Position numbers and translations under genes: made by a program. A stretch of 64,000 nucleotides of DNA from contig NZ_CP018061.1 in NCBI RefSeq assembly GCF_002813755.1, positions 2,532,001 through 2,596,000 of the forward strand, given 5' to 3'. Below are positions 7,483 through 41,988 of this stretch, one piece after another. Under the pieces are notes generated by a model that was not told the DNA's origin, ran no database searches, and saw nothing but the letters and a program-made list of their open reading frames with translations. The number at the start of each line of letters is the position of its first letter. Position 1 is the first letter of the stretch. This DNA comes from Enterococcus mundtii (GTDB taxonomy: Bacteria > Bacillota > Bacilli > Lactobacillales > Enterococcaceae).

Positions 7483-7513
7483 ATGATATTGGTTAGAGCG
7501 ATTCTAAGGTCAA
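7483..7513 (-). promoter_or_regulatory. MerR-type promoter of the baeRF gene (site A)
   Basis: On the minus strand -35 TTGACC (7508-7513) and -10 TATCAT (7483-7488) are separated by 19 bases. The spacer holds the perfect dyad TTAGA-N5-TCTAA. The long spacer with a central dyad is the hallmark of promoters activated by MerR-family proteins. Three further copies lie at 38.6, 38.75 and 41.97 kb. Confidence 0.75.
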
Positions 7514-7614
7514 CCTAATGTTTTATACAAAATCAAAAATGCCGGAATAGTGTTTTTTCTTCTCCAAAAACTCTTGAAGCATGTTCCATTAAATTCAAAA
7601 ATTAAATTTCCCCA

Positions 7615-7670
7615 TAAAAAATCCCGCCCTAGAGAAGTCAGATCAATATCTAACTTCTAAAGAGCGGGAT
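7615..7670 (-). terminator. Terminator of the DUF1836-degV operon
   Basis: ATCCCGC (7621-7627) and GCGGGAT (7664-7670) enclose further pairing of AGAAGT with ACTTCT. On the minus strand a TTTTTT run follows. Confidence 0.8.
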
Positions 7671-7765
7671 TCTATTTACGATTCTTTTCCTGTCCACTAT
7701 TTTTTTCTAATTATTTTAGATAAAAAATAAATTTGTTCTTTGATGATCACTTCGCTTTGATCATA

Positions 7766-8623
7766 TTATGCTTCAAGTATTTGTACACCGATCCCTAATA
7801 AACCTGGGCCAGTATGGACAACCAATGCCGGTGAGATTTGTCCAAAATAAATCTCTTGGGCATTTGGGAATTCACGTTCAAAGCGAGCTTTCATTTCAAT
7901 TGCTTCTTCTTCCGCTGCACCATGTGCGACTGCCAAGTTGAAGACTTTCGCATCCCCGACAGTTTCTTTCACATAGGACATTGTTTTGTCTAAACTTTTC
8001 TTTCTGCCTCGTGCTTTACCTACTGTATAATAGATGCCCTCTTCATTACAAGAGATAATGGGATTCAATTTTAAGGCATTTCCTAAAATTGAGGCAACTA
8101 GACCGATACGTCCGCCTTTTTGCAGGTATTCAAGTGTTGCTACATTGAAAAAGACTTTCGTCCGTTCTGCTAATGCAACTAATTCATCGATCAGCATTTC
8201 CCATTCCATGCCTTCTTCGATCCATTTTGCGGCTTGGATTGCTGTAAAACCAGCACCGATCCCAATATTTTTAGTATCTAATACATGTGTTTGGATTCCT
8301 TCTTGTTCTTGCGCAACAAGACGAACCACATTATTCGTTCCGCTCAAACCACTTGAAATAGTGATTGCTAGAACTTTATCATAGCCATCATTTTTGATTT
8401 GATCAAAAATTTTAGTGATTGATTCTCCATCAGGTAACGAAGTACCCGGAATTTCCTCAGGTAAACGCTTATAAATCTCTTCAGGAGTGATATCGACCTT
8501 ATCTGTATATTCTCTATCTTTATAAATGATTTTCAAAGGGATCACATAAATATTGTACATATCGATGATTTCTTGTGGCACATCTGTTCCTGAGTCTACT
8601 AAAATCGCAATCTTATTCTTCAT
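7766..8623 (-). CDS. DegV family fatty-acid-binding protein (FakB-like)
   Basis: A 285-residue DegV protein. It opens with the family strand IAILVDSGTDVP and has the TSLPDGE loop, the SSGLSGT motif that holds the fatty-acid carboxylate, and a YLQKGGRIG segment typical of the family. DegV/FakB proteins present fatty acids to the kinase FakA for phosphorylation and entry into phospholipid. The paralogue and lipid preference cannot be told from sequence. Its start overlaps the end of the DUF1836 gene by 11 bases, so the two are coupled. Confidence 0.93.
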   Translation of the reverse strand: MKNKIAILVDSGTDVPQEIIDMYNIYVIPLKIIYKDREYTDKVDITPEEIYKRLPEEIPGTSLPDGESITKIFDQIKNDGYDKVLAITISSGLSGTNNVVRLVAQEQEGIQTHVLDTKNIGIGAGFTAIQAAKWIEEGMEWEMLIDELVALAERTKVFFNVATLEYLQKGGRIGLVASILGNALKLNPIISCNEEGIYYTVGKARGRKKSLDKTMSYVKETVGDAKVFNLAVAHGAAEEEAIEMKARFEREFPNAQEIYFGQISPALVVHTGPGLLGIGVQILEA

Positions 8624-9188
8624 TTTCTTTCTCCTTTTTTGTCTCTTGTAAATATTCGCTTTCTAGGCTGATCGTTTTTTCCGCTAGTAGCTTCATTGCA
8701 AAAGAAATCGTCGCTGAACGTACAGCAACATATTCTAATGGAAGTTCTTGATTCAATAATTGTTCATGTTGTTTTCCTTGGGCTAATTGACTGACCATTC
8801 GTATTGCATTTTCTTGTTCATCACAAAAAAGATTGTATGCTTCACGGATGCCCACTGTTTTTCCTTGAAACAAAATTCCTTCTTTGATTTCAGGAATCGT
8901 CAACACTTGTTTAAGCGTTGTGATAGCAATCAGAAATGCCACATGTTGTTTGTTGTATCGCTTTTTGATTGGCGCCGGTACCAAACCTAGTTTCACATAA
9001 TTATTAACCATTGAAGAAGTTAACAAAGGATGTTTTTCTCCTTGGATCACTGGTGATAAGTGACGATCCACCAGGGTCTTAACTTGATCCATGTATAGCT
9101 CCAAGTCTGGAAGTTCTTCCCAATGAGGTAAACGAAACGTTTCGATACTGACAGCCCAATCAATTAATTGCTGGCGCATTTTTTCCAT
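8613..9188 (-). CDS. DUF1836 domain protein
   Basis: A 191-residue protein with the DUF1836 pattern. It has a short N-terminal helix, then LTSSMVNNYVKLGLVPAPIKKRYNKQHVAFL, which resembles the helix-turn-helix plus wing of MerR-like DNA-binding domains (residues about 57-90), followed by helices. It commonly precedes degV in enterococci and lactobacilli. A regulatory role is likely from the fold but not proven. The ATG follows AAGGAGC. It contains no cysteine-rich effector motif like classical MerR sensors. Confidence 0.8.
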   Translation of the reverse strand: MEKMRQQLIDWAVSIETFRLPHWEELPDLELYMDQVKTLVDRHLSPVIQGEKHPLLTSSMVNNYVKLGLVPAPIKKRYNKQHVAFLIAITTLKQVLTIPEIKEGILFQGKTVGIREAYNLFCDEQENAIRMVSQLAQGKQHEQLLNQELPLEYVAVRSATISFAMKLLAEKTISLESEYLQETKKEKENEE

Positions 9189-9337
9189 TATGAAAGCTCC
9201 TTTAATGTTCTCATTAATATCTTATCAAAGTTTTCAAAAACATTCAATCTAGTTACTCAAACTAGATAAATTAATAACAAAAATAAACATCAATAACAAG
9301 TGTTTAAACGAGGATTGTTCTAGGTTCTTCTTGAAAT

Positions 9338-9366
9338 AAAAAAAGACCCGCCATTTTCATGACGGG
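9338..9366 (-). terminator. Terminator-like hairpin
   Basis: CCCGCCAT and ATGACGGG pair with one mismatch around a short TTTC loop. On the minus strand a run of seven T follows. No minus-strand gene clearly ends here, so it may close an unrecognised small transcript. Confidence 0.5.
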
Positions 9367-9380
9367 AAAGGAGTAAAAAA

Positions 9381-9461
9381 ATGAAAAAGTGTTATGGGTT
9401 GTTCTTTTGCAAGAACTTTGTTGGTTGGGATACATTTATCATAACGGTCATTTATGAATAA
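9381..9461 (+). CDS. Possible 26-residue peptide
   Basis: ATG with a good ribosome site (AAAGGAG, 8 bases upstream) opens 26 codons: MKKCYGLFF, then CKNFVGWDTF, then IITVIYE. It starts just after the hairpin at 9338-9366. No homologue is recognised. It may be a leader peptide, a real micro-protein, or chance. Confidence 0.25.
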   Translation: MKKCYGLFFCKNFVGWDTFIITVIYE

Positions 9462-9520
9462 ACTATGAATGAATTTCTAGGAAGTAGTAAAGTTTTCGTA
9501 GATTTTTTATTGTACGTACC

Positions 9521-9549
9521 TTGCATTTTAAAATGCTTAGTGCTACTAT
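9521..9549 (+). promoter_or_regulatory. Promoter of tRNA-Lys
   Basis: -35 TTGCAT (9521-9526) and -10 TACTAT (9544-9549) with 17-base spacing, placing the start of transcription about 15 bases before the tRNA. Confidence 0.55.
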
Positions 9550-9569
9550 AATAAAGTACTTTTTCATAT

Positions 9570-9642
<73 letters not shown>

Positions 9643-9659
9643 TTGGGTGCCAAACCCAC

Positions 9660-9723
9660 GTCACCAGTACACTCTTGGCTACTTCGGTAGTTTGGAAAAG
9701 AGTGTACGTGGTGGCATTTTTTT
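9660..9723 (+). terminator. Terminator of tRNA-Lys
   Basis: A long hairpin (TCACCA with a bulge, then GTACACTCTT, pairing with AAGAGTGTAC and TGGTGGC) is followed by seven T. It begins 18 bases after the tRNA. Confidence 0.85.
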
Positions 9724-9832
9724 GTTTTAAACATTTTTTTATCACCTTTAAAAAGGCGTACAAGGGTTTTATTCTCTCCTGTTGATTATTGGGATACTTA
9801 CGTGATTATCATTATCTTCACCACTTATCTAT

Positions 9833-9994
9833 TTACTCCCAAAACGCTTCGCCTCTAAGTAGATGATCTATGCTCTTTTCAAGAATCAAAATATTTCTGT
9901 CTAAATTCTTAGAAAGAATTTCCGCTTTTCGGGTATCTTTCAAAGATAGATTGCCACCATATCTTTCAAAAATATTAGGAACCTTTTGATTCAA
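9833..9994 (-). CDS. Hypothetical 53-residue protein, probably a mobile-element leftover
   Basis: A TTG start directly after a very strong ribosome site (AAGGAGGGGG) opens 53 codons beginning MNQKVPNIFERYGGNLSLKD and ending RGEAFWE. The protein is charged and helical. No family is recognised. It follows the frameshifted frame at 10021-10180 by 26 bases, in the order of a two-gene unit next to a tRNA, a common site for mobile-element remnants. Its origin is inference. Confidence 0.45.
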   Translation of the reverse strand: MNQKVPNIFERYGGNLSLKDTRKAEILSKNLDRNILILEKSIDHLLRGEAFWE

Positions 9995-10020
9995 AAAACC
10001 CCCTCCTTTTCCAGTTAACT

Positions 10021-10200
10021 TTAAACTAAATTAATTGCCTTCTTTCCCTCGCTAATCGTCTCATCCTCTTCATCGAGTACTTGTAATAGCGTTCCCAAAC
10101 TAAACATTTTCTTCTTTTTGTCCCCCAAAAACATACCAAAAAAGCGTTCCATTAACATTTGGTTAACGAAACGCTCTATACATTGTTCAATTATATCATT
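10021..10200 (-). pseudogene. Frameshifted remnant of a small gene
   Basis: Two minus-strand frames meet at a run of seven T (10138-10144 on the plus strand). The upstream frame reads LSLNDIIEQCIERFVNQMLM and then ERF, and the downstream frame reads FGMFLGDKKKKMFSLGTLLQ, VLDEEDETISEGKKAINLV, stop. Removing one base of the run would join them into a continuous protein of 60 or more residues. No start codon is seen for the full frame. The product is not recognised. Between this and the next gene (10201-10324) nothing was identified. Confidence 0.45.
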
Positions 10201-10324
10201 TAAAGATAGATCACTTTCTCTTATTCAGATTGATTCCCTATCTACTCCATAGAAAAATTATGTTTCAGACTCCCTCTGAGATCCATTAAAATTGTCTTTT
10301 TCTCTATCATCTTACCCTTTTTTT

Positions 10325-11332
10325 CTATGAGTACTCAAATTGGCGATAATAGCGTCGAATTTCCAGCGGGTGGCAATTCATTTGTTCGACATAGGCATCA
10401 ATCCGCTGTGTCACGCAATGCATCAATAAGTGAGAAAGCACTCGGCCACGATATTTCTCACTTATTCCTGAAACAGGATAGTCCTTCGTATCGATCAATG
10501 TATAGTTTGCACAAATTCTTGGTAACAATTTAGCGACTCTTTCTGATAATGGGCGTTGTTCGTCTTCTCCTAAAAACACTGTGACAGGTGTAGTTTCATC
10601 AACGATTTCCAACGTTCCGTGAAGAAACTCAGCAGCATGGATCGATTTTGAACGTAACCAGCTTTGTTCCTCCCAGTAGCACATGGCGTAAGAATAGACT
10701 GCACCCCATTGATTTCCCGCACCGATGAAATAATGCATGGCATCATGACGATGTTTCTCCGCAAATCCTCGCCCAAATTCATCCGCCTGCTTCTCAGCTT
10801 CTACTAATCCTTTTGCTAAATATTGTTCCAATTCTTGATAGTAGGCTTCGTAATCAGGAAAATCTCCATGGTTTTTCATTAACCGATCTGCCACCATAAA
10901 GAATTTTATTTGTTCTGTTCCTGCTGCAGGATACGTAATGATATGGTCACATTGTTCCGCCAAAATACTGCCTTTTGTATCAATAAACCCTAATAAGGTT
11001 GCTCCTACTTTTTTGATTTCTTCAACTGATTTAACCACTTCTTGTGTCGTTCCAGTAACAGAGGACAAGATAACTAACGAGTCTTTAGTCAAACGACGGT
11101 TACCGGTTGTATAATATTCTGCCGCATGTTGGACGTAAACTGGTAGGTCGCTTTTTCCATTGATGTAGGTAACTGCTTGCATGGCAGAAGCATACGTACC
11201 ACCAATCCCTAGATAATAAATCGCATCAAAGCCTTGTTCATCAAGGAAATCGACTATTTTTTCAATTTCAGGACGTAGCTCTAACATTCCTTGGATATCA
11301 TCAATTTGTTGTTGTTCATTAAATTTAAGCAT
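10325..11332 (-). CDS. gfrF: SIS-domain deglycase, fructoselysine-6-phosphate deglycase type (FrlB/GfrF)
   Basis: A 335-residue protein with two SIS (sugar isomerase) domains. The first shows YYLGIGGTYASAMQAVTYI and the Ser/Thr-rich phosphosugar loop SSVTGTTQEVVK. The second carries SIHAAEFLHGTLEIVDE, which matches the ESGEFRHGPLEIVE block of E. coli FrlB, and both end in a RRYY motif. FrlB-type enzymes split fructoselysine-6-phosphate into glucose-6-phosphate and lysine. It is the last gene of a PTS operon with a second deglycase, the order of the gfr operon described in Salmonella and the related E. faecium operon. The precise Amadori substrate is inferred from homology and order. Confidence 0.85.
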   Translation of the reverse strand: MLKFNEQQQIDDIQGMLELRPEIEKIVDFLDEQGFDAIYYLGIGGTYASAMQAVTYINGKSDLPVYVQHAAEYYTTGNRRLTKDSLVILSSVTGTTQEVVKSVEEIKKVGATLLGFIDTKGSILAEQCDHIITYPAAGTEQIKFFMVADRLMKNHGDFPDYEAYYQELEQYLAKGLVEAEKQADEFGRGFAEKHRHDAMHYFIGAGNQWGAVYSYAMCYWEEQSWLRSKSIHAAEFLHGTLEIVDETTPVTVFLGEDEQRPLSERVAKLLPRICANYTLIDTKDYPVSGISEKYRGRVLSHLLMHCVTQRIDAYVEQMNCHPLEIRRYYRQFEYS

Positions 11333-11342
11333 TTTTCCACCT

Positions 11343-12392
11343 CTAAATTTTACTTTTTAAAACTTGATCAAAGTCATCAAAAATACGGTTATTCAAATCG
11401 ATCCCTTTAGCACCTGCCCCGAGATAGGAGAAAATTTGGAACGGAATAACTAAAAGCAAAGAAGAAAAAGTTTCTTCACATGCTACATCCAGCCCAAGTG
11501 TATCGGGATTCTTTGCTACTGCTGTGGTGATCGTATAAGCTTTTCCTACATGAGATTCTATATAATCATGCAATAGTTGGGCTCTTGATTGATTCGAGCT
11601 TGGTGCTTCTATAAAGAAGAGCACATGTTGATGATTGGCTTCAAGATAAGGTCCGTGCATATAAGCTTCCAATTCAAACCCTTGAGAAGGCACTCGAATG
11701 GTTTCGGTGAATTTCGTTTCAAATTCTTTAGCGGTTCCCCAGTTTGGTCCATAACCGACTGCCACAAACCGATTCGCTAGTTTAAAGATGCTTGCGTTTT
11801 TCTCAAAAAAATCAATCGTTTTAGCTATAACTTGCGGAATGGCCTCAATCATCTCCTCTAACTGGTTTTTGGTCATCGACACTTGTTCATCGGATAGTAT
11901 TCCTTTACTGTAACCAATAGATACCCCCATTAAATAGAGTTGTAATACCGTTGCTACATATCCTTTTGTCACGAATCCAACGGTTTCGATCCCAGTTCCT
12001 AGATCAATTCTTTCGTTTGCTTTTTGAGCCAGAAGACTTTGGGAATCACTACTTAAACTGATTGTGTAAAAACCTTGTTCGGACAAATGCGCCACTGCAT
12101 CTATAGTAGAGGTACTTTTTCCGCTTTGAGAAACCGCCAAAACTGTCTCTATTTCTTTAGAAAGATGTCCGTAATGATTAAAGTGGTATGGCTCTTCAAT
12201 AGTGACAGTGATCCCCGCTAATTTCTCCATCGCGTACTTTGCTGCTAAACAGGCATTTGAAGAAGAACCTGTTGCCAAAATCAATAGATGTTCGATCGCA
12301 GCTCTTTTTTCTTCTTTTTTAGGAACAAATTCCTGCAAGATCTTAACTAATGTTGCTTGCTCTTCCTGTATATAGTCCATCATTGTTGCCAC
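11343..12392 (-). CDS. gfrE: SIS-domain deglycase, glucoselysine-6-phosphate deglycase type (GfrE)
   Basis: A 349-residue double-SIS protein. It has LILATGSSSNACLAAKYAMEKL and the phosphosugar loop SQSGKSTSTIDAV in the first domain, and SQGFELEAYMHGPYLEAN, the family's EFxHGP-like block, in the second. In E. faecium a protein of this type, encoded beside a FrlB relative and a mannose-family PTS, was shown to be glucoselysine-6-phosphate deglycase. The start is a GTG seven bases after GGAGG. It lies 10 bases before gfrF and 12 after the IID gene. The generic alternative is another amino-sugar isomerase or deaminase. Confidence 0.8.
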   Translation of the reverse strand: MATMMDYIQEEQATLVKILQEFVPKKEEKRAAIEHLLILATGSSSNACLAAKYAMEKLAGITVTIEEPYHFNHYGHLSKEIETVLAVSQSGKSTSTIDAVAHLSEQGFYTISLSSDSQSLLAQKANERIDLGTGIETVGFVTKGYVATVLQLYLMGVSIGYSKGILSDEQVSMTKNQLEEMIEAIPQVIAKTIDFFEKNASIFKLANRFVAVGYGPNWGTAKEFETKFTETIRVPSQGFELEAYMHGPYLEANHQHVLFFIEAPSSNQSRAQLLHDYIESHVGKAYTITTAVAKNPDTLGLDVACEETFSSLLLVIPFQIFSYLGAGAKGIDLNNRIFDDFDQVLKSKI

Positions 12393-12404
12393 AACAATTC
12401 CTCC

Positions 12405-13229
12405 TTAAAAGAGTCCAATCAAGGATCCCAAAATACCTAAGACTGCTAATCCAAGCAGGATAATCAACGGTTTGACTTCTTTTTTCAAAAGATAAAAGAC
12501 AGCGCCAAATGCACCTAATGATAAAATTTTCGGTACGATATCATCAAAGATACTTTGTACCGTAACCGCATTCTCTCCTGAACCGATCTGCAACGGAATG
12601 TTGATATCAATCATCGTAGCGGTCATTCCTCCTACGACCATCAACCCAATAATCGCCGCGCCATAGGTTAAGCTTTCCATCAAACCGTTTTCCTGAATTT
12701 TCTTTAAAAATCCCGATCCAAGTTTATATCCCCAACCAGTCGCAAAATAACGAAATAGTAGATGTGGGACATTGAAAATCAATAGAAACAGAATCGGACC
12801 TAGTATATTCCCTTGTAATGCCAATGAAGTTCCTACCCCTGTGGCAATTAACCGTAACGTTCCCCAAAAGAAAGAATCGCCAATCCCTGCTAAAGGCCCC
12901 ATCAAAGAAGTCTTGATGTTTTCGATTGCTGATGAATCAAAATTCGGATCATTGCTATTTTCTTCTTCCATCGCCGCGTTGATTCCTAAAATAAGCGTGA
13001 CGATATGCGGGGTCGTGTTGAAAAATTCCAGATGTCGTTTCAACGCATCAGCCATAGATTCTTTTGTTTTATAGAGTTTCTTCAAAATCGGAATCATAGC
13101 ATAGACATAGGCTAAATTCATTTGTCGCTCATAGTTCCATGAGAACTCCATTTGAAATGAACGCCAAAAGACATGATTCAACTCTTTCTTGGTAATCTCG
13201 GGTTTCTCATTAGAAGTCTTCTTCATCAT
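12405..13229 (-). CDS. gfrD: PTS EIID component, mannose family (GfrD-like)
   Basis: A membrane protein of 274 residues with the EIID signature region SFQMEFSWNYERQMNLAYVYAMIPILKKLY at its N-terminus and SLMGPLAGIGDSFFWGTLR in the middle, followed by hydrophobic segments. With EIIC it forms the sugar channel. I place the start at the ATG at 13229, six bases after GGAGG; the first in-frame start codon, at 13230-13232, is a TTG. It overlaps the end of the EIIC gene by 20 bases, showing coupled translation. Substrate is inferred from the deglycases downstream. Confidence 0.93.
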   Translation of the reverse strand: MMKKTSNEKPEITKKELNHVFWRSFQMEFSWNYERQMNLAYVYAMIPILKKLYKTKESMADALKRHLEFFNTTPHIVTLILGINAAMEEENSNDPNFDSSAIENIKTSLMGPLAGIGDSFFWGTLRLIATGVGTSLALQGNILGPILFLLIFNVPHLLFRYFATGWGYKLGSGFLKKIQENGLMESLTYGAAIIGLMVVGGMTATMIDINIPLQIGSGENAVTVQSIFDDIVPKILSLGAFGAVFYLLKKEVKPLIILLGLAVLGILGSLIGLF

Positions 13230-13995
13230 CAAGTACCTCCCCTGAAGTCATTTGAACAGATTGCCCTTGTTCACGAATGTTTCTTAAATTCACAACTACA
13301 ACAGCAGTTATCGCTCCAAAGATCGCAATCCCCGTAACAGGAATCTCTAAATAAGCTGCTAATGCAAAACCTAAAAAGAAATAAGGAGCAACTTGTTTGT
13401 TGATCAGCAACCGAGCCAACATGGCAAACCCTAAGGCTGGAATCAAACCAGTTGCAACTGATAATCCATTCTGTACAAATACCGGAATCATCTCCAATAA
13501 CTTACTAATCGTATTGCTGCCCACCATGAAGGAAATCGTAACTATAAGGGCTAACATCAAAGACAAGCCAAAACCGGCTAATAAGTGCATTCGTTCCACG
13601 CCTTTGTAATTCCCATCAGTCGCGTATAAATCAGCTTTTTGGTTCATCATTGGAATAAGCAGTCCTAAGTATACATTTTTCAGGATTAGCGTTAATGTAG
13701 CGATTGGAAGTCCTAATAGTAAAGCCGTCTCAGTTCCCGCTCCAGCTGTAATTGCGAATGCTGTGCCAAGAATTCCTCCTGTTACAACATCTGGTGGGAT
13801 AGAAGCACCTACAGAAAACGAACCAATAAAAGCTAATTCCAGTGTGGCACCCATAATAATTCCTGTGTTTACGTCCCCTAATACGATTCCTGTAAACAAC
13901 CCAGTAACAATCGGACGCGACAGTAATGACGTTCCCAATGCGTATTCAGACTGCGCAATAAATGCAACAATTCCAAGTAATATTGCTTGCAGCAT
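13210..13995 (-). CDS. gfrC: PTS EIIC component, mannose family (GfrC-like)
   Basis: A 261-residue membrane permease of the mannose-sorbose family. It has glycine-rich hydrophobic segments with VTGLFTGIVLGDVNTGIIMG, ATLELAFIGSFSVGASIPPD and GTAFAITAGAG, the conserved EIIC order. The C-terminus is acidic (DDEEDF). It sits between EIIB and EIID in one operon and together with EIID should form the translocation unit for Amadori-type sugars. Confidence 0.94.
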   Translation of the reverse strand: MLQAILLGIVAFIAQSEYALGTSLLSRPIVTGLFTGIVLGDVNTGIIMGATLELAFIGSFSVGASIPPDVVTGGILGTAFAITAGAGTETALLLGLPIATLTLILKNVYLGLLIPMMNQKADLYATDGNYKGVERMHLLAGFGLSLMLALIVTISFMVGSNTISKLLEMIPVFVQNGLSVATGLIPALGFAMLARLLINKQVAPYFFLGFALAAYLEIPVTGIAIFGAITAVVVVNLRNIREQGQSVQMTSGEVLDDEEDF

Positions 13996-14012
13996 CTCTT
14001 TTGCTCCTTTCT

Positions 14013-14483
14013 TTATAAAACATCTTCGACAGCGACTTTTTTATCCGAAGGTACTTGACGGATATCGACAGCAATTCCTTTAGCAATCATTTTTTTCAAA
14101 ATTTCTTCTTCCGCAGGTAAAATATTAACTGCCTTTCCAATATTCTTAGTTCCTTCTTTGGCTTTGATCCCACCCAAATTGACTTTAGTGATTTCTGGAT
14201 AGTGTTCTGCTAATCTATAGGCATCCTCGATGGAATCTACTACGATGAACAATTTGTATTTATCGGTCACGCCGCTTTGTAATGCTTGGATGGAATCCTC
14301 AATTGTTTTAATCACCAGTTTGATGCCTTGCGGTTTTGCTAGTTTGATCGCTGTCTTACGAATATCATTTGTCGGCACATCATCATTGGCAATCAAGATG
14401 CAATCTGCGCCTAAATTTTGCGTCCAGGAAAATGCGACTTGTCCGTGTAATAGTCGATGATCGACTCGTGTCAAAATAATCAT
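14013..14483 (-). CDS. gfrB: PTS EIIB component, mannose family (GfrB-like)
   Basis: A 156-residue cytosolic protein, typical length for free mannose-family EIIB. The phosphoryl-accepting His is in the RVDHRLLHGQVAFSW motif (His13). It takes the phosphoryl group from EIIA and passes it to the sugar during transport. AGGAGGG precedes the ATG. It lies 10 bases after the EIIA gene and 17 before EIIC. Confidence 0.94.
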   Translation of the reverse strand: MIILTRVDHRLLHGQVAFSWTQNLGADCILIANDDVPTNDIRKTAIKLAKPQGIKLVIKTIEDSIQALQSGVTDKYKLFIVVDSIEDAYRLAEHYPEITKVNLGGIKAKEGTKNIGKAVNILPAEEEILKKMIAKGIAVDIRQVPSDKKVAVEDVL

Positions 14484-14493
14484 GTTGTCCCTC

Positions 14494-14913
14494 CTAAAAT
14501 TCTTCTTCTTCGATTTCTTTTTCTACACTATCATTACAAAACTGGATCATCTCTTTCGAATTGGCCAGCGTTTGGTGGATCGTTTCTGAGATTGCACCTC
14601 CTCTTTGAAATTGTGTCGTCAATTCAATCAACAATGGCAAATTCAAGCCTGCAATCAAGTAAAAATTTGGTTGTTGGATATAACGCAAAAATTCATTGTT
14701 CACGCTACCGCCGAAAATATCTGTGATAACGATCACTTCAGAATGTTTATATGTTTGCATCAGGGTATCCACCGTTGTCGTCAGATCAAATGTTTCTTCC
14801 ACATAGCAGTCAATCGCAACGACTGATTGTTTTTTACCGCAGATAAGTTCTAACGAATGTAAGATTCCTGATGCAAATCTTCCGTGTGATGCTAAAATAA
14901 CGATTTGTTCCAC
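14494..14913 (-). CDS. gfrA: PTS EIIA component, mannose family (GfrA-like)
   Basis: A protein of 139 residues with the EIIA-Man fold pattern. The active His is in ILASHGRFASG near residue 10, and VIVITDIFGGSVNNEFLR follows in the middle. It accepts phosphate from HPr. The longest frame starts at 14982, but that would place coding sequence across the hairpin and the -24/-12 promoter. A GTG at 14913 after GAGGTG gives the normal N-terminus (EQIVILASHG), so that start is chosen. It is the first gene of the operon. Confidence 0.92.
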   Translation of the reverse strand: MEQIVILASHGRFASGILHSLELICGKKQSVVAIDCYVEETFDLTTTVDTLMQTYKHSEVIVITDIFGGSVNNEFLRYIQQPNFYLIAGLNLPLLIELTTQFQRGGAISETIHQTLANSKEMIQFCNDSVEKEIEEEEF

Positions 14914-14954
14914 TGCTTTCACCTCACTTTGCTCCAAGTTACACCTTACTAAAC

Positions 14955-14988: not shown

Positions 14989-14996
14989 CTTATTGA

Positions 14997-33963: not shown

Positions 33964-34013
33964 TTTCACTTAGTGATAGAACCGTTACTGGATTTTAATA
34001 AAGGAGCATTCTC

Positions 34014-34979: not shown

Positions 34980-34982
34980 ACG

Positions 34983-35019
34983 AAAAAGAGCTTGGATATT
35001 GCATCCTCGCTCTTTTTTT
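34983..35019. terminator. Bidirectional terminator between nrdF and the convergent dehydrogenase gene
   Basis: AAAGAGC-TT-GGAT and ATCC-TC-GCTCTTT pair; T7 follows on the plus strand and T5 on the minus strand. Confidence 0.88.
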
Positions 35020-35054
35020 GTTTCTCTTTAACCAACTGACAACCTTAGTTCTTC

Positions 35055-36089
35055 CTATTTTTTATCTAAATAAAGATGTGCTGGATACGTCATATATTCG
35101 ACAGGTTGCAATTGATCGATCGTGACATAGCCTGCATTGGAATTGATCACTGTCGGTATCCGGTTGATCAACGTAGCGCACGTATGCTTTGGTGTATCTG
35201 GTTTGGTTACTTCAAATTGCATACTTGGCGTTCCTTCGATCGACCAAGTACATAGATCTCCTTCACCTGTCTGATAGACTTTTCCAGTACAACCGACTTC
35301 CACAACTGGTCCTTGTACCGTTTCGATCGTTGCAACGGCAGACATCCCAATTGCTTCGCCTGCCTTGATTGTCCGCCCCATGGTTTTTGACGGAATATCT
35401 TTATCTAAAATGATTGGAACGTTTTTTTGAGAAATGCGTTTGATCGACCAATCCATTTTGGCACAGATCGCTTCAGCGGTCATCCAAGAATAGGAAGGCA
35501 AATCGGTTGCATTGGCAATTTCTTTGTCAAATCTTTCTTGATCATAGCCCACACCATGCGCTTCCGCTAACGCTTTTCCATAGTGTTCGACATCATAACT
35601 AACTTCCCCACTGATTTTTTGTACATCATTCACGCCAGCAGCCAGCAGCGTTGGAAACGACACCCAGTAAATATCTTGCATTCCTGTTCCTGAAATCGTC
35701 ACGTTGTTGGCTTTTGCGATTTTATCTAAACGATTGGTTTCTGCAACCGAAGTCGTCCAAGGATACAAAGCTTCTTCACCGATCGTTAAAACATTGACTC
35801 CATAGGTCAAGGGTATCTCTAAACTCGGCATGAAATCTTTGATATAACTAGCAATCGTGACTAAAGCGACATCGGCATCACAGTTTTGAAATACTTCATG
35901 AGGATCGCTGGAGATTTTAATACCTAAGGCTTGTTCATAGCCTAAATATAAGCCTAGATCTTGACCGATTGCCTCTGGACGATTGTCTACAGCTCCAACG
36001 ATTTCAATATCTTTTGCCAAGGCATATTTGATAATCTCTTTCGACATTTTTCCACAGCCGACTTGGACCATACGAATTTTTTTAGTCAT
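35055..36089 (-). CDS. NAD(P)-dependent dehydrogenase, 2,4-diaminopentanoate dehydrogenase-like
   Basis: A 344-residue dehydrogenase with an N-terminal Rossmann motif (MVQVGCGKMSKEI) and the pattern of dihydrodipicolinate-reductase-like amine dehydrogenases. Segments GTGMQDIYWVSFPTLLAAGV, then the EVSYDVEHYG region, resemble 2,4-diaminopentanoate dehydrogenase of ornithine fermentation. The real substrate is unknown. It is the last gene of an operon with alanine dehydrogenase and a class III aminotransferase, so it probably handles an amino or keto intermediate of the same route. No other ornithine-fermentation genes (such as the mutase or thiolase) are seen. Confidence 0.65.
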   Translation of the reverse strand: MTKKIRMVQVGCGKMSKEIIKYALAKDIEIVGAVDNRPEAIGQDLGLYLGYEQALGIKISSDPHEVFQNCDADVALVTIASYIKDFMPSLEIPLTYGVNVLTIGEEALYPWTTSVAETNRLDKIAKANNVTISGTGMQDIYWVSFPTLLAAGVNDVQKISGEVSYDVEHYGKALAEAHGVGYDQERFDKEIANATDLPSYSWMTAEAICAKMDWSIKRISQKNVPIILDKDIPSKTMGRTIKAGEAIGMSAVATIETVQGPVVEVGCTGKVYQTGEGDLCTWSIEGTPSMQFEVTKPDTPKHTCATLINRIPTVINSNAGYVTIDQLQPVEYMTYPAHLYLDKK

Positions 36090-36117
36090 TTTATTCCCTC
36101 ACTTTTTTTAAAGATTT

Positions 36118-37218
36118 TTAAACAAGCTCACGAACATCAACTACTGTTCGCTCAAACACCTCACCTACTTCAGGACAGGTCAGTCTTCCTTTATACGTAC
36201 TGATACCTGGAATGATTTCTGGATAGGTTTGGATCACGTCAGTCAGTGATTGAGAGGCTAATCCTTTGATATATCTCATCGTGACATTCGTTAAAGCTAA
36301 CGTAGACGTTTGAGGAACTAAACCTGGCATATTCGCAACCGAGTAGTGGATCACTCCATGTTTAACGAAAGTCGGTTCTTCATGGGTGGTTGGCTGGCTC
36401 GTTTCAAAACAGCCCCCTTGGTCAATCGCAATATCCACCAAGATCGTTCCTTCTTTCATTTGCTTCACTAATTCTTCTGTGATAAGATGTGGGGCTTTTT
36501 TACCTGGTAATAAGACTGAACCAATCACGATATCACTAGTCAATGCCATTTTCTCAATATTCGTTGGGCTTGAGTAGAGGGTTTTTACTTGCCCATTAAA
36601 CATCTCTGACAATTCACGTAAGCGGTCGACATTGATATCTAAGATCGTCACATCTGCCCCTAATCCGTGCAAGTAATGCGCGGCACTCACTCCGGCGATC
36701 CCACCACCTAAAATAGTTGCCTGAACTGGTAAAACACCGGTTACACCTGAAATCAATTTTCCACTTTGCTTCGCTAAAATCTCCGCACCCAATAGACCCC
36801 CTAAACGGCCAGCGACTTCACTCATTGGTGCGAGTAATGGAAATGCTCCGTTTTTCGTAACCATTTCATAGGCAATTGCGGTTGTCCCAGACTTGATCAA
36901 CGCTTCGGTCAATTCAAGATTTGCGGCTAGATGCAAGTACGTAAATAAAATCAAGTCTTTTCTAAAATATTGATATTCCGATGCTAGTGGTTCTTTGACT
37001 TTCACGACGATTTCTGCCGACCAGACTGTCTCTGGATCAGCTTTGATTTGAGCGCCAGCTTCACGGTATTGACTATCTGTAAAGCCTGACCCTTCCCCTG
37101 CACGTTCTTCCACATAAACGGTATGACCAGCTGTAACTATCTCTTTTACTCCTGCAGGTGTCACGCCTACACGTTTCTCTGAATTTTTGATTTCTTTTGG
37201 TACACCAATGATTGTCAT
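36118..37218 (-). CDS. ald: Alanine dehydrogenase
   Basis: A 366-residue protein that reads MTIIGVPKEIKNSEKRVGVT, the typical Ald start, followed by MVTKNGAFPLLAPMSEVAGR and the Rossmann segment ATILGGGIAGVSAAHYLHGLGADV. It interconverts L-alanine and pyruvate plus ammonia with NAD. Beside an aminotransferase that probably uses pyruvate as acceptor, it would recycle alanine to pyruvate. Gap to the aminotransferase gene is 18 bases, with GGAGG before the ATG. Confidence 0.93.
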   Translation of the reverse strand: MTIIGVPKEIKNSEKRVGVTPAGVKEIVTAGHTVYVEERAGEGSGFTDSQYREAGAQIKADPETVWSAEIVVKVKEPLASEYQYFRKDLILFTYLHLAANLELTEALIKSGTTAIAYEMVTKNGAFPLLAPMSEVAGRLGGLLGAEILAKQSGKLISGVTGVLPVQATILGGGIAGVSAAHYLHGLGADVTILDINVDRLRELSEMFNGQVKTLYSSPTNIEKMALTSDIVIGSVLLPGKKAPHLITEELVKQMKEGTILVDIAIDQGGCFETSQPTTHEEPTFVKHGVIHYSVANMPGLVPQTSTLALTNVTMRYIKGLASQSLTDVIQTYPEIIPGISTYKGRLTCPEVGEVFERTVVDVRELV

Positions 37219-37236
37219 ATTATATCCTCCTTTGAA

Positions 37237-38577
37237 TTATTGTTGCTTTTGCCACTCCTCAAAGCCCATATGAATCGCATCGAATAGTTGATCTGCGTTT
37301 TCCTTTGAAAAGGTCAACGATGGTGAAATGATAATCGTTTGTAATTCATCACGGAGCAAGACACCTGCATTGATGGCATAATCAGCAACTGCTTGCACAT
37401 TTTTTGCTGTTTGTTCCACATCATATTTCCCTGTATTCTCAAAATCGATAGCGATCATCAAGCCTTTTCCACGAACATCACTAATGCAGTCATATTTTCC
37501 TTCAATACCTTTTAGACGTTCCAATAAATATGCACCGACTTCACGAGCATTTTCAACTAAGTTTTCTTCTTCCACAATACGTAAAGCTTCTAATGCTGCC
37601 ACGCAGCCGAGCGGGTGTCCACCGTAAGTATGCCCATGGATAATGACATTAGCTCCATTGGTCGCTGATTCGATGCCTTCAACAATGCGTTTGTTAAAAA
37701 CAGTTGCCCCTAGTGGAACATACCCAGAAGATAATCCTTTTGCTAGAACCATGGCATCTGGTTTGATGCCCCAGCCACGACTACCAAAAAGATATCCTGA
37801 ACGGCCAAAACCTGTCACAACTTCATCTGCAATCAATAAAATATCATAAGTATCACAAACTTCCCTTAAAGCTGGCCAATAAGAAGTTGGTGGAACGATG
37901 ATACCGCCAGCACCTTGGATCGGCTCAGCAATAAATGCAGCAATATGATCTGCGCCAATCTGTTCAATCGTTTCAACTAGTTCAGCGATACAGAGTTTTG
38001 TCAATTCTTCTGGATCTTGGCAATTCCATTTATTTTTCTTCAAATGTGGAGAAGAAACACGTACACAATCTTGTAAACCTGGACCAATAAATTCCCGATA
38101 GATGGGGTTACCACCTATCGACGTTCCACCATAATGCATCCCATGATAGGCTTTTTCCAATGACAGAAATACTTTCTTTGTCGGTTTACCTACTGCTTGC
38201 CAGTATTGTCTTGTTATTTTCAACGCAGTATCTACTGAATCACTTCCTCCAGAAGTAAAGAATACTTTCGCCATCTCTTCTTCTTGCGTCATTTGAATGA
38301 TTTTTTCTGCCAAGTCATATGCCTTGGGATGGGCAATATTCGTAAACAATTGATAGTAAGATAATTTTTCCATTTGATCAGCAATTGCTCGGTTCATTTC
38401 AGGGCGATTATGACCAACGTTCATACACCATAATCCACCGACACCATCGAGTAATTTTCTCCCTGTATCATCATAGATAAAATTCCCATCTCCACGTTCG
38501 ATAACGATCGTTTCTTCTTCACTTGCTCGGGTATCCGTCATCGGATGCCAAAAATACTTTTTCTTGCGATTGTTCAT
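37237..38577 (-). CDS. Class III (omega) aminotransferase
   Basis: A 446-residue PLP enzyme of the omega-amino-acid:pyruvate class. It begins YFWHPMTDTRASEEE, like beta-alanine or amine:pyruvate transaminases. It has the motifs GGSDSVDTALKITRQYW, EKAYHGMHYGG, the cofactor Asp in LLIADEVVTGFGR and the Schiff-base Lys in VLAKGLSSGYVPLGA. The likely reaction is transfer of an amino group from an omega-amino acid or amine to pyruvate; donor unknown. It is the first gene of the operon, with the MerR-type promoter site B. Confidence 0.88.
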   Translation of the reverse strand: MNNRKKKYFWHPMTDTRASEEETIVIERGDGNFIYDDTGRKLLDGVGGLWCMNVGHNRPEMNRAIADQMEKLSYYQLFTNIAHPKAYDLAEKIIQMTQEEEMAKVFFTSGGSDSVDTALKITRQYWQAVGKPTKKVFLSLEKAYHGMHYGGTSIGGNPIYREFIGPGLQDCVRVSSPHLKKNKWNCQDPEELTKLCIAELVETIEQIGADHIAAFIAEPIQGAGGIIVPPTSYWPALREVCDTYDILLIADEVVTGFGRSGYLFGSRGWGIKPDAMVLAKGLSSGYVPLGATVFNKRIVEGIESATNGANVIIHGHTYGGHPLGCVAALEALRIVEEENLVENAREVGAYLLERLKGIEGKYDCISDVRGKGLMIAIDFENTGKYDVEQTAKNVQAVADYAINAGVLLRDELQTIIISPSLTFSKENADQLFDAIHMGFEEWQKQQ

Positions 38578-38616
38578 ATTATTCTCTCCTTTATCTGCTT
38601 TCCTGTTTACATGTTA

Positions 38617-38647
38617 AGACTAAAGGGTAGAACTACTCTAAGGTCAA
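38617..38647 (-). promoter_or_regulatory. MerR-type promoter of the aminotransferase operon (site B)
   Basis: On the minus strand -35 TTGACC (38642-38647), 19 bases, -10 TAGTCT (38617-38622). The spacer holds TTAGA-N5-TCTAC, one base off the perfect dyad. Confidence 0.7.
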
Positions 38648-38747
38648 TCTTTTTTTATTATTTTAATAAAATCGCTTACATTGAAAAAAGTAAAAAATCA
38701 CTTATATAGAAGAAAAAATACTTTTGTAATTTTATTTGTAAAGCATA

Positions 38748-38778
38748 TTGACCTTAGAACGATTCTAACCTCTAGGAT
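38748..38778 (+). promoter_or_regulatory. MerR-type promoter of the AEC transporter operon (site C)
   Basis: -35 TTGACC (38748-38753), 19 bases, -10 TAGGAT (38773-38778), with the perfect dyad TTAGA-N5-TCTAA in the spacer. Site B faces the other way 100 bases to the left. Confidence 0.75.
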
Positions 38779-38801
38779 GTGATTGAGGAGGATTGGTAAA
38801 C

Positions 38802-38813
38802 ATGCACAGCTGA
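38802..38813 (+). other. Three-codon reading frame (Met-His-Ser) with a strong ribosome site
   Basis: GAGGAGG (38785-38791) is followed by ATG CAC AGC TGA. The arrangement repeats just downstream before the real AEC start (GAGGAGG, then ATG at 38864). The predicted transcript from site C would begin close to the first GAGGAGG, so the mini-frame may be translated poorly. Confidence 0.3.
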
Positions 38814-38863
38814 TTCAAATAAACAAATTAAAACATTCACAAGAATTGAGGAGGAAAATTTAA

Positions 38864-39892
38864 ATGTCACTATCAGAAACATTGAGCAATGTCATCAACA
38901 TGGAAATTATCAGTGCGATCACTTCCACACTGTTTATTATATTATTAGGTTACTTTTTAAGAAAGCACGAGATTTTCTCATCAGATGTCGGAAAGACATT
39001 GTCTAAGGTCGTCTTAACTGTCGCAATTCCTGCATTAGCTTTTAATTCGTTTATGCAGGACTTGAATGATGAAGTATTGAATCAAGGAATCAACATTTTG
39101 ATTCTTGGGATATTGGTCCACGTTTTCTTGATTTTTCTAAGTAAATTCTTCTTTTTTAGATATGCACCAAATAAAGAAGACACATTGCGTGTACTCTCTA
39201 TTTTCGGGTCAACAACATTTTTCGGTATTCCTGTTGTCGGTGCAGTCTTTGGCGCAGAAGGGATTTTGTACGCATCGATTTTTAACATTGGTTATCGTAT
39301 CTTTTTATACTCTTATGCTTATTTAAAAATGAGTGGATTGAAAATGGCACGCAAGAATATTAAAGAAATGATCTTGAACCCAATCGTATTGGCAACTTTT
39401 ATCGGATTATTTATTTGGCTCTTCCAAGATAGCTTACCTCAAATTGCTCAGTCTAGTTCTGAATCTGTTGCTTTTTTAAGAATCGATCAGACGTTGCCAT
39501 GGCTATTTAAACCTTTGACGTTCCTCTCTAGTTTAGCCTCCCCACTCGCTTGGTTGGCAATCGGGATCACATTAGGCGATCTGCCATTCGGAAAAACCCT
39601 CAGCAGTCACACCTCTTGGTACTATTCATTCATCAAAGTCATTGTCTTCCCACTTGTGATTTTACTTTCAATTTTACTGTTGAACGCAATGAATATTTTA
39701 CCAGTGAACGCAGTTGGTCTAAGTACGATAATCATTATGATGGCTACTCCGGCTGCAACAGTTGCGGTTGCTTATGCCATCAACTTTGAAAAAGAAGCAG
39801 TACTTGCCTCTAACGCCTCCTTGCTTTCTACACTCTTCTCGATCGTGTTGATCCCTATCTGGATCATCGTCTTAAACTTGCTTGGAAATTAA
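38864..39892 (+). CDS. AEC family transporter
   Basis: A 342-residue membrane protein with about ten hydrophobic segments in two halves, the auxin efflux carrier / malonate-malate permease family: LLGYFLRKHEIFSSDVGKTL near the N-terminus and PAATVAVAYAINF near the C-terminus. Members export or import organic anions or amino acids. Its operon partner is a D-2-hydroxyacid dehydrogenase, so exchange or export of a hydroxy acid is a reasonable inference. It is expressed from MerR-type promoter C. Confidence 0.85.
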   Translation: MSLSETLSNVINMEIISAITSTLFIILLGYFLRKHEIFSSDVGKTLSKVVLTVAIPALAFNSFMQDLNDEVLNQGINILILGILVHVFLIFLSKFFFFRYAPNKEDTLRVLSIFGSTTFFGIPVVGAVFGAEGILYASIFNIGYRIFLYSYAYLKMSGLKMARKNIKEMILNPIVLATFIGLFIWLFQDSLPQIAQSSSESVAFLRIDQTLPWLFKPLTFLSSLASPLAWLAIGITLGDLPFGKTLSSHTSWYYSFIKVIVFPLVILLSILLLNAMNILPVNAVGLSTIIIMMATPAATVAVAYAINFEKEAVLASNASLLSTLFSIVLIPIWIIVLNLLGN

Positions 39893-39931
39893 CCCACATT
39901 ATATAATTAATTAACGAAAGGAAACTATACT

Positions 39932-40939
39932 ATGAAAAATTTAAATGTTGTATGTTATGGTGTTCGTCCTGCTGAAAGATCTCTCTTTCAGCAGTTGAAT
40001 ATCCACGGATTCAATTTGAATCTCGTAGAAGATTTATTGAATGAGACAAACTATACAGAAGCAAAAGGAATGGATGCCGTCATTCTTAGAGGTAACTGTT
40101 TAGCAAATCGCATAAATATCGAACGTTTTGCCCAATTTGGGATCAAGTTCCTACTCACACGTACAGTTGGGACAAATCATATTGATTTAATGGCAGCTCA
40201 CGATCATGGAATGCAAGTCGCGTATGTACCATTTTATTCACCAAATGCAATCGCTGAATTATCTGTTACTTTAGCAATGATGCTTTTACGTAGAACAACT
40301 CATACAACGAATAAAACAGCTTCTTATAATTTTACGATTGATCGCTTTATGTTCAGTAAAGAAGTCCGAAACTGTACAGTTGGAATCGTTGGCGTGGGGA
40401 ACATCGGACTAACAGAAGCAAAACTTTTCAAAGGATTAGGCGCAACGGTGATTGGGAATGATCTATATCCAAGTGAAGAAGCAAAAGCAGCCATCGAATT
40501 TAAGTCTCTTGATGACTTACTGGCAGAAAGTGATATCGTCAGTATCCATATTCCTTACATCCCCGGTAAAAATGAACGTTTCATTAATAAAGATTTTATC
40601 GAAAAAATGAAGGATGATGCGATTTTGATCAACACTGCTAGAGGAGAATTACAGGATAATCAAGCAATTCTTGATGCGTTGACGAGCAAAAAACTATCTG
40701 GATTTGGTACAGATGTCTTGCCTAATGAAGCGCTGATTTTCAACAAAAATTTTGATGAAGATCCGTTATTGATCGATGCAACAGCTAAGGCGCTGATCGA
40801 TATGTATCCGCGAGTGATCGTTACACCACATATTGGTTCGAATACCGATGAAGCAGTATCAAATATGATCGAAACAAGTTTTGACAATCTCTATAAAATG
40901 TTCAATCAATTGGACTGTGCCAACATGCTTTCTAGTTAG
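39932..40939 (+). CDS. D-2-hydroxyacid dehydrogenase (D-lactate or D-hydroxyisocaproate type)
   Basis: A 335-residue NAD-dependent dehydrogenase. NAD motif VGIVGVGNIGLTEAKLF; catalytic Arg in ILINTARGELQD, Glu in GTDVLPNE (five residues after the Asp, as in D-LDH), and His in VIVTPHIGSNT. It reduces 2-keto acids to D-hydroxy acids. In this cluster it could remove the keto acid formed by amino-group removal and regenerate NAD. Alternatives are D-lactate dehydrogenase or a VanH-like enzyme, but no van ligase is nearby. Confidence 0.87.
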   Translation: MKNLNVVCYGVRPAERSLFQQLNIHGFNLNLVEDLLNETNYTEAKGMDAVILRGNCLANRINIERFAQFGIKFLLTRTVGTNHIDLMAAHDHGMQVAYVPFYSPNAIAELSVTLAMMLLRRTTHTTNKTASYNFTIDRFMFSKEVRNCTVGIVGVGNIGLTEAKLFKGLGATVIGNDLYPSEEAKAAIEFKSLDDLLAESDIVSIHIPYIPGKNERFINKDFIEKMKDDAILINTARGELQDNQAILDALTSKKLSGFGTDVLPNEALIFNKNFDEDPLLIDATAKALIDMYPRVIVTPHIGSNTDEAVSNMIETSFDNLYKMFNQLDCANMLSS

Positions 40940-41002
40940 GCTGGAGCATTGACAGCAAAGAACTAGCGATCCGATATTGGGACAGAAGTGTTTCCCCTCA
41001 AC

Positions 41003-41062
41003 AAATAAGGCGACAACCATGAAAATTGCTCTTCCAATTTTTGTGGTAGTTGCCTTATTTTA
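41003..41062 (+). terminator. Terminator of the AEC / hydroxyacid dehydrogenase operon (dispersed repeat copy)
   Basis: AAATAAGGC and GCCTTATTT outer arms enclose ACAACCATGAAAATT-like arms with partial mismatches; T-rich sequence follows. The left arm resembles the hairpin at 29864. Confidence 0.7.
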
Positions 41063-41171
41063 AAAGAGACTACTTGATTCCCGCCGTTGATTTGTTTGTA
41101 TGGTCACAGACAAAAGTGAATCTTACGTTTGTTTTAACTACTTTCCTTTCGATCATCACAAAAAATAGTAA

Positions 41172-41217
41172 GACAGAATCCCCAGAAAATCAAAGAATAC
41201 TTTCTGGGGGTCCTGCC
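41172..41217 (-). terminator. Terminator of the SDR gene
   Basis: CCCCAGAAA and TTTCTGGGG pair with additional outer GAC/GTC and CAG/CTG pairing; on the minus strand a T-rich stretch follows. The rest of the gap from 41063 shows no gene. Confidence 0.6.
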
Positions 41218-41259
41218 TTATTTCAAAGCTGAAAATTTCTGTCAAACCTCAATTATTTT

Positions 41260-41892
41260 TTACTCGTGTATTTTTCCCTTTGCTGTTAATGCAATAGAGT
41301 CATACATATGAGTAGTTGGCTCGTTGATCAAAGTTGCTAGGTACTTCCCTACAGTTTGTCGGCTGATTTCACCAATGAGACTTTTTCCGTTTCTATTCTC
41401 GATACGAATATCCTCAATGATCTCTTTATCGGTTAACCAATTGGGGCGGATGATGGTAAAGTCTAGATGACTGTTCTCAATCAAATCTGCTGCAATACGC
41501 TGATCCCCTAAATAAGTATCAGGATCGCGATAGTCGCCCAACTCTGCAATTGCTTCTTCGTCATTGAAGTCAACTTCACCGTAGATCCCAAGTGTTGCCA
41601 TCCAATATACGCGTTTGATCTTATTCTGGTTCATCGCCTCGATCACATGTTTAGCTAAAAGCACCATGTTGTAAGGACCTAAGCAAGAGTAGACGATATC
41701 AATGCCTTTCATTGCATGAACCAAATCATCTAGATTCGTCGCATCACCAATGATACTTCGCTCCTTATCAAAGACTTTATCCGGATTTCTTAAAAATAAA
41801 GTTACATTCACCGTAGGATCATTTTTTAAAAATTCATAGCTATATCTAGCAATTGGTGCTGATGCACCAAGGATCAATACGTTCTTTTTCAA
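41260..41892 (-). CDS. NAD(P)-binding protein, NmrA/atypical SDR family
   Basis: A 210-residue Rossmann protein: VLILGASAPIARYSYEFL (Gly-rich nucleotide loop with one Gly changed), DIVYSCLGPYN, and DFTIIRPNWLTD. This is the pattern of short atypical SDR / NmrA-like proteins, some of which reduce quinones or act as redox sensors. No YxxxK catalytic pair in classic position is seen. The start is a TTG seven bases after GAGGTGG. It has the MerR-type promoter D, the same type as the amino-acid cluster next door. Confidence 0.75.
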   Translation of the reverse strand: MKKNVLILGASAPIARYSYEFLKNDPTVNVTLFLRNPDKVFDKERSIIGDATNLDDLVHAMKGIDIVYSCLGPYNMVLLAKHVIEAMNQNKIKRVYWMATLGIYGEVDFNDEEAIAELGDYRDPDTYLGDQRIAADLIENSHLDFTIIRPNWLTDKEIIEDIRIENRNGKSLIGEISRQTVGKYLATLINEPTTHMYDSIALTAKGKIHE

Positions 41893-41957
41893 TCTATTTC
41901 CACCTCTAGTTTTGATTTTTTACTTGTACAACGCTCCTCCTTTGATAAGATGAGTAA

Positions 41958-41988
41958 AGTATAAGGCTTAGAACGACTCTAACCGCAA
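41958..41988 (-). promoter_or_regulatory. MerR-type promoter of the SDR gene (site D)
   Basis: On the minus strand -35 TTGCGG (41983-41988), 19 bases, -10 TATACT (41958-41963), with the perfect dyad TTAGA-N5-TCTAA. Confidence 0.7.

What the first reader, a model, noticed from the sequence alone, without database searches (positions are those of the whole stretch)
7483..41988. Four promoters share a MerR-type 19-bp spacer and a TTAGA-N5-TCTAA dyad: an unassigned regulon
Sites A (7483-7513), B (38617-38647), C (38748-38778) and D (41958-41988) each have a -35, exactly 19 bases, and a -10, with TTAGA-N5-TCTAA in the spacer (one mismatch in B). The -35 boxes are TTGACC three times and TTGCGG once. 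The four drive a baeRF-type protein, an aminotransferase-ald-dehydrogenase operon, an AEC transporter-hydroxyacid dehydrogenase operon and an SDR protein. The 19-bp spacing is a known hallmark of MerR-type activation. No MerR regulator is encoded in the window, so the regulator and its signal are open. Joining a ribosome-associated protein to amine catabolism would be new.
Basis: partly seen in the sequence, partly recalled or inferred. Interest (0 to 1): 0.85.

Follow-up and report, generated by a model that had tools for sequence, protein, structure and literature searches.

The report
BmrR-type MerR regulon in Enterococcus
Five matching switch sites in an Enterococcus genome, four of them in this window, point to one sensor protein encoded elsewhere in the genome that probably detects an organic amine and turns on amine-processing enzymes, a cation pump of unknown cargo and a protein related to factors that put ribosomes to sleep.

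The parts
7483..7513 (-). site A: MerR-type promoter TTGACC-19-TATCAT with dyad; ends 80 bases before the baeRF start codon
   Evidence: identical in G011
6332..7402 (-). baeRF family 3 protein, Balon-like, 356 aa; hairpins with T runs on both sides read by eye
   Evidence: PF18845 over cut-off; full-length match to Balon chain 8rd8_B E 1.4e-31; NF052287 213.5 bits, below its cut-off 330; sequence
38617..38647 (-). site B: TTGACC-19-TAGTCT, one dyad mismatch; 39 bases before the aminotransferase start
37237..38577 (-). class III aminotransferase (omega-transaminase type), first gene of the site B operon
   Evidence: PF00202; NF005683 588.7 bits over cut-off 575; 5lh9 E 2e-152
36118..37218 (-). 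alanine dehydrogenase, 18 bases after the aminotransferase
   Evidence: TIGR00518 479 bits over cut-off 391.85
35055..36089 (-). relative of 2,4-diaminopentanoate dehydrogenase and amine dehydrogenases, 28 bases after alanine dehydrogenase
   Evidence: PF19328 over cut-off; 6iau 'Amine Dehydrogenase' E 8.8e-81; NF040740 below cut-off
38748..38778 (+). site C: TTGACC-19-TAGGAT; 85 bases before the AEC gene
38864..39892 (+). AEC-family membrane transporter
   Evidence: PF03547
39932..40939 (+). D-2-hydroxyacid dehydrogenase, 39 bases after the AEC gene
   Evidence: PF02826, PF00389
41958..41988 (-). site D: TTGCGG-19-TATACT; 65 bases before the SDR start
41260..41892 (-). NAD(P)H-binding SDR-type protein, 210 aa, TTG start
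   Evidence: PF13460

Best explanation
The four sites plus a fifth outside the window form the regulon of one BmrR-type MerR regulator. Its gene is at G000:C1:1086186-1086971 and the fifth site at G000:C1:1087068-1087098, between it and a divergent P-type ATPase gene. The dimer would sit on the dyad in the over-long 19-base spacer and, on binding its effector, distort the DNA so that RNA polymerase can use both boxes. The effector is most likely an organic amine or similar cation, bound by the GyrI-like domain with its conserved glutamate. The response would be removal of the amine: transaminase, alanine dehydrogenase and the amine-dehydrogenase relative turn it into a carbonyl compound plus ammonia; hydroxyacid dehydrogenase, SDR protein and AEC carrier deal with products and redox; the P-type ATPase pumps a cation of unknown identity; the Balon-like protein protects or silences ribosomes meanwhile. 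Shown by sequence: the sites, the regulator gene beside the fifth site, the co-occurrence, the related regulators beside amine oxidase genes. Inferred: binding, activation, effector, direction of the chemistry, roles of pump and ribosome factor.
Against: No binding or expression data. The dyad alone is not enriched. The window promoters are conserved only in close relatives, so part of the conservation is shared descent. D has a weak -35, and the -10 boxes of B, C and the fifth site are weak. Two of the 7 more distant MerRs (G014, G033) have no such site within 4 mismatches. In G048 the MerR gene reads as two pieces while the site and ATPase remain. The ATPase, DUF1576 and Balon-like genes do not by themselves suggest amines. 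A MerR with a GyrI-like domain could as well sense drugs.
Confidence: 0.55

Rival explanations
1. Same regulator and regulon, but the natural effector is a foreign cationic or lipophilic compound (drug, dye, biocide), as for BmrR; the metabolic genes are part of a general protective response and the amine theme is incidental.
For: Fold and full-length match are to BmrR, whose solved structures hold berberine, acetylcholine, 4-amino-quinaldine and tetraphenylphosphonium (titles). A GNAT gene is under the site in G057. Other enterococcal MerRs answer to cationic biocides: ChlR and chlorhexidine (PMC5971576, passages).
Against: No drug-efflux transporter of a known kind is among the five promoters' first genes; transaminase, alanine dehydrogenase, amine-dehydrogenase relative and, in relatives, amine oxidases are enzymes of small amines.
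Confidence: 0.25
2. The signal is a carbonyl compound (aldehyde or ketone), and the enzymes reduce or aminate it.
For: SDR, hydroxyacid dehydrogenase, transaminase and amine dehydrogenase can all run towards alcohol or amine (general knowledge). NmlR-type MerRs answer to aldehydes (recalled).
Against: Amine oxidases under the same operator in relatives make aldehydes rather than remove them. The sensor domain is GyrI-like with a conserved glutamate, unlike short NmlR proteins.
Confidence: 0.1
3. The signal is an inorganic cation such as Ca2+; the ATPase is a calcium pump and the other genes follow envelope or ion stress.
For: ATPase closest to the Listeria Ca2+-ATPase LMCA1 and best NCBIfam model PMR1-type, though below its cut-off (600 against 798.3).
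Against: M6 Asp720 of LMCA1 is Ser702 here, Ser in 7 of 7 orthologs. The sensor is of the small-molecule type.
Confidence: 0.06
4. The sites are bound by another MerR of the genome, or are inert remnants.
For: The genome has nine other PF13411 matches, one of them at C1:2523110, about 9 kb outside the window. No experiment exists.
Against: None of the five sites lies beside another of these MerR genes. The -35 boxes and half-sites show 0 changes in 90 positions while flanks change. Site and this MerR co-occur across genomes.
Confidence: 0.05

Closest known systems
BmrR of Bacillus subtilis and its bmr promoter
   Different: About 21% identity; different operator; five separate promoters with metabolic, ATPase and ribosome-factor genes instead of one drug pump; effector unknown.
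ChlR-EfrEF of Enterococcus faecalis (chlorhexidine-induced)
   Same: Enterococcal MerR divergent from a transport gene, with the motif next to the -35 (PMC5971576, passages).
   Different: Controls an ABC exporter; its 3' half motif is given as ACTTGAA and said to occur nowhere else on that chromosome; the C-terminal region has no predicted domain.
BltR subfamily of MerR regulators (Zharov et al. 2011)
   Same: Multidrug-type MerR regulators with predicted promoter sites; B. subtilis blt-bltD carries a spermidine acetyltransferase gene (recalled).
   Different: Not compared: I saw only the reference entry. It may already list some sites of this kind.
Listeria Ca2+-ATPase LMCA1 (lmo0841)
   Same: Closest solved relative of the ATPase (E 4.9e-161); DKTGT, PEGL and M6 Asn kept.
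   Different: M6 Asp720 is Ser702 here. The paper passages name Asn716 and 'Asn720' as ligands; the sequence shows Asp at 720 by my count.
Balon, ribosome hibernation factor of Psychrobacter (AOC03_06830)
   Same: Full-length homology (8rd8_B, E 1.4e-31); no GGQ or NIKS in the sequence, as stated for Balon-like proteins (PMC10901736, passages).
   Different: Below the NCBIfam cut-off; stands alone with its own promoter rather than in a stress operon.

Membership tests
MerR family, BmrR type (regulator outside the window) | N-terminal MerR winged-helix domain | tested here: met
   PF13411 and PF00376 over cut-offs
MerR family, BmrR type (regulator outside the window) | C-terminal GyrI-like small-molecule domain | tested here: met
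   PF06445 30.3 bits over cut-off 26; fold match
MerR family, BmrR type (regulator outside the window) | long dimerisation helix between the two domains | tested here: met
   helix 74-113 in the predicted model; dimer itself not modelled
MerR family, BmrR type (regulator outside the window) | glutamate equivalent to BmrR E253 | tested here: met
   E238 by alignment, 11 of 11
MerR family, BmrR type (regulator outside the window) | dyad inside a 19-20 bp promoter spacer | tested here: met
   five sites, all 19 bases
MerR family, BmrR type (regulator outside the window) | binds the dyad and activates on ligand binding | not testable with these tools
   needs bench work
BltR subfamily | groups with BltR in a tree | not tested
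   no BltR sequence was at hand
P2A Ca2+-ATPase (ATPase outside the window) | DKTGT phosphorylation motif and PEGL in M4 | tested here: met
P2A Ca2+-ATPase (ATPase outside the window) | M6 Asp of the Ca2+ site (LMCA1 720) | tested here: not met
   Ser702, in 7 of 7 orthologs aligned; not filed as a Ca2+ pump
Balon-family ribosome hibernation factor (baeRF gene) | full-length homology to Balon | tested here: met
   8rd8_B residues 10-369 to 8-356, E 1.4e-31
Balon-family ribosome hibernation factor (baeRF gene) | NCBIfam NF052287 cut-off | tested here: not met
   213.5 of 330 bits; so called Balon-like only, baeRF family 3 by Pfam
Balon-family ribosome hibernation factor (baeRF gene) | binds the ribosomal A site | not testable with these tools
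   needs bench work
Alanine dehydrogenase (36118-37218) | TIGR00518 cut-off | tested here: met
   479 of 391.85 bits
Amine dehydrogenase relatives (35055-36089) | closest solved relatives are amine dehydrogenases | tested here: met
   6iau E 8.8e-81, 7qzl E 7.8e-79; activity not testable here

The most novel reading that the evidence does not exclude
The regulator senses a polyamine or biogenic amine, and its P-type ATPase, which keeps the pump machinery but lacks the Ca2+-site aspartate, is a bacterial primary pump for that amine. The Balon-like factor is switched on directly by the amine sensor to guard ribosomes, tying ribosome hibernation to one metabolite through a BmrR-type regulator rather than to general starvation signals.
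Probability: 0.1. Interest if true: 0.85.

Novelty: new member of a known kind. Interest (0 to 1): 0.5.

Why it matters
It gives a regulator, a compact operator and a short target list, so three open questions become directly testable: what this group of P2-like ATPases pumps, what switches on a Balon-like ribosome factor, and how an Enterococcus near E. mundtii handles organic amines. It also looks like a local regulator-pump pair that has gained four further promoters in one small branch of the genus.

Tried and rejected
Dyad alone as evidence: rejected, no excess over control. Of six exact dyads outside the window that I looked at (L001-L006), by eye only the one beside the MerR gene has the promoter boxes.

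Wider spread: a scan of 398 Bacilli genomes at up to 3 mismatches gave 10 hits in 10 genomes besides the own genome, while the reversed-pattern control rang in 22 genomes by my count. None of the ten loci shows a MerR-profile hit in the ORFs printed around the site. I treat them as chance and claim the operator only for Enterococcaceae, although a MerR and an ATPase of Lactococcus garvieae (P0136, P0029) are listed with the same longest-contig length, 480235, as are five other MerR-ATPase pairs among the 20 MerR hits; their promoters were not read. Two one search hits in MerR-negative genomes (G015, G083) and one in G003 (contig C81) lack TTGACC, and I read them as chance.

TTGACCTTAAAG-type sites (G001, G003, G010, G012) first looked like regulon members. 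They sit beside another MerR; the neighbouring gene is an ABC exporter by Pfam in G003 and a similar-looking ORF in the other three. They were set aside.

Ca2+ pump as the ATPase function: lowered after the M6 comparison. That ATPase families 23 and 24 cluster with Ca2+ pumps was seen in passages of PMC5615198; membership not tested. PMC10654040 was read in passages only.

Literature: the listings (10 searches) showed no paper on this regulon. Only open-licence papers are held and listings are capped, so this does not prove absence. Searches returned mostly unrelated uses of the word.

Protein searches were capped: only the 7996 candidates sharing most words were scored and 120 listed.

Organism names: from equal contig lengths, G011 is E. 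mundtii Pe161, G013 E. villorum, G048 E. innesii GAL7, and G003 is deposited as E. faecalis 13-SD-W-01.
Full report
1. Observation. The four sites are as described. From -35 to -10, A, B and C read TTGACC and D reads TTGCGG, each followed by exactly 19 bases and a -10 box of the form TAnnnT. TTAGA-N5-TCTAA is exact in A, C and D and has one mismatch in B. The full pattern gives 4 hits in the window, against none in 100 dinucleotide shuffles and none in 300 Markov sequences. The pattern was drawn from the sites, so these tests are post hoc. The dyad on its own is not enriched (62 against 54 expected at up to 2 mismatches; 213 against 233 in the reversed control for the genome).

3. Relatives. 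In 105 genomes of the family, the MerR protein at E 1e-20 or better is in 15 and the loose site in 12 (25 hits against 5 for the reversed pattern). Ten genomes have both; 2 of the 90 MerR-negative genomes have a site-like match, neither with TTGACC (Fisher p 6e-9). Eight genomes carry what I call subfamily 1 (42-97% identity in the six intact relatives aligned): G000, G003, G005, G007, G011, G013, G047 and G048. In all eight the site stands before the ATPase gene. The ATPase at 60% identity or more occurs in exactly these eight; the next matches are at 54% or below and belong to a widespread paralog (63 of 105 genomes have some match at E 1e-200 or better). In G013 the regulator is on another contig than its two sites. 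The MerR of G048 reads as two pieces, and the ATPase of G005 as two overlapping frames.

4. The window promoters in relatives. The aminotransferase is in 3 of 105 genomes (G000, G007, G011). Close SDR orthologs (95-98%) are in the same 3, with distant relatives at 34-43% in 16 others. The baeRF gene is in 2 of 105 (G000, G011). Where the close gene is, its site is too. Across these genomes 3 of 155 site positions vary (fifth site included), 0 of 90 in the -35 boxes and half-sites, against 69 of 829 flanking positions (p 0.004). The genomes are close, so this is modest support.

5. Related regulators. Seven further genomes have a MerR at 30-33% identity. In five of them the same operator overlaps the end of the MerR gene by four bases. 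In G020, G026, G077 and G081 it stands before a flavin amine oxidase gene: PF01593 in all four; the one of G081 is closest in the PDB to monoamine oxidase and putrescine oxidase. That oxidase is in exactly these 4 of 105 genomes at E 1e-60 or better. In G057 the site stands before a GNAT acetyltransferase gene. The sites of G020, G026 and G081 carry 2-3 mismatches to the strict pattern and were seen in fetched neighbourhoods, not in the blind scan. G014 and G033 have no such site within 4 mismatches in the stretch read; G014 has a similar 19-spaced sequence before the MerR gene itself (read by eye). No tree was built, so 'subfamily' means identity level only.

6. Targets here. Site B stands before an omega-transaminase-type gene (5lh9), alanine dehydrogenase (TIGR00518 over its cut-off) and an amine-dehydrogenase relative (6iau). 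Transaminase plus alanine dehydrogenase is a known way to deaminate amines while recycling pyruvate (recalled). Site C stands before an AEC carrier and a D-2-hydroxyacid dehydrogenase, site D before an SDR-type protein. Site A stands before a baeRF family 3 protein whose full length matches Balon (8rd8_B, E 1.4e-31), below the NCBIfam cut-off. Hairpins with T runs lie on both sides of that gene (sequence, read by eye), so site A is its evident promoter. In the Balon paper the genes are described next to RaiA, heat, osmotic, acid and multidrug genes (PMC10901736, passages); no amine link appears in the passages I saw.

7. ATPase. The closest solved relative is LMCA1. DKTGT, PEGL and the M6 Asn are kept, but M6 Asp720 of LMCA1 is Ser702 here, and Ser in 7 of 7 orthologs aligned. 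Three paralogs at about 50% that I read (P0035, P0060, P0120) have Thr-Thr in this stretch and no Asp. So the Ca2+ label should not be carried over; what it pumps is open.

8. Mechanism. By the BmrR model (PMC7722741, passages) the liganded dimer distorts a 19-bp spacer so that polymerase can use both boxes. The amine signal is my inference from the GyrI-like domain with its glutamate, the amine oxidase and acetyltransferase genes beside related regulators, and the transaminase operon here. I put the regulator assignment at about 0.9, an amine or amine-like cation as natural signal at about 0.55, and direct control of the Balon-like gene at about 0.85.

9. Novelty. MerR promoters with 19-20 bp spacers and small regulons are well known (PMC1526738, passages). 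This is a new member with unusual targets. I found no paper on it in the listings named under Tried and rejected. A 2011 paper on the BltR subfamily, seen only as a reference entry, could already list some of these sites.

Noticed in passing
L094:9560-9636 (G013 contig C11, E. villorum): Two operator promoters back to back: one before the P-type ATPase gene, the other before two DUF1576 proteins of unknown function.
   Followed up: partly
L088:6370-8995 (G005): The operator-linked ATPase reads as two overlapping frames, so it is broken in this assembly. Described only.
   Followed up: no
L105 (G003 contig C73): A second MerR-ATPase neighbourhood in G003, with the MerR in two overlapping frames and a short ATPase piece. 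Described only.
   Followed up: no
G000:C1:80344-82842: A second P-type ATPase of the own genome, 53% identical to the operator-linked one; this paralog type is widespread in the family, and the paralogs read also lack the M6 Asp.
   Followed up: partly
window 42064-42972: A cation-efflux (CDF) gene runs the other way from site D; the site points towards the SDR gene, so whether it matters for the CDF gene is open.
   Followed up: no
L044, L048, L050, L052: TTGACCTTAAAG-type promoters beside a different MerR gene, with an ABC exporter gene in G003; layout like ChlR-EfrEF.
   Followed up: partly
   Followed up: no
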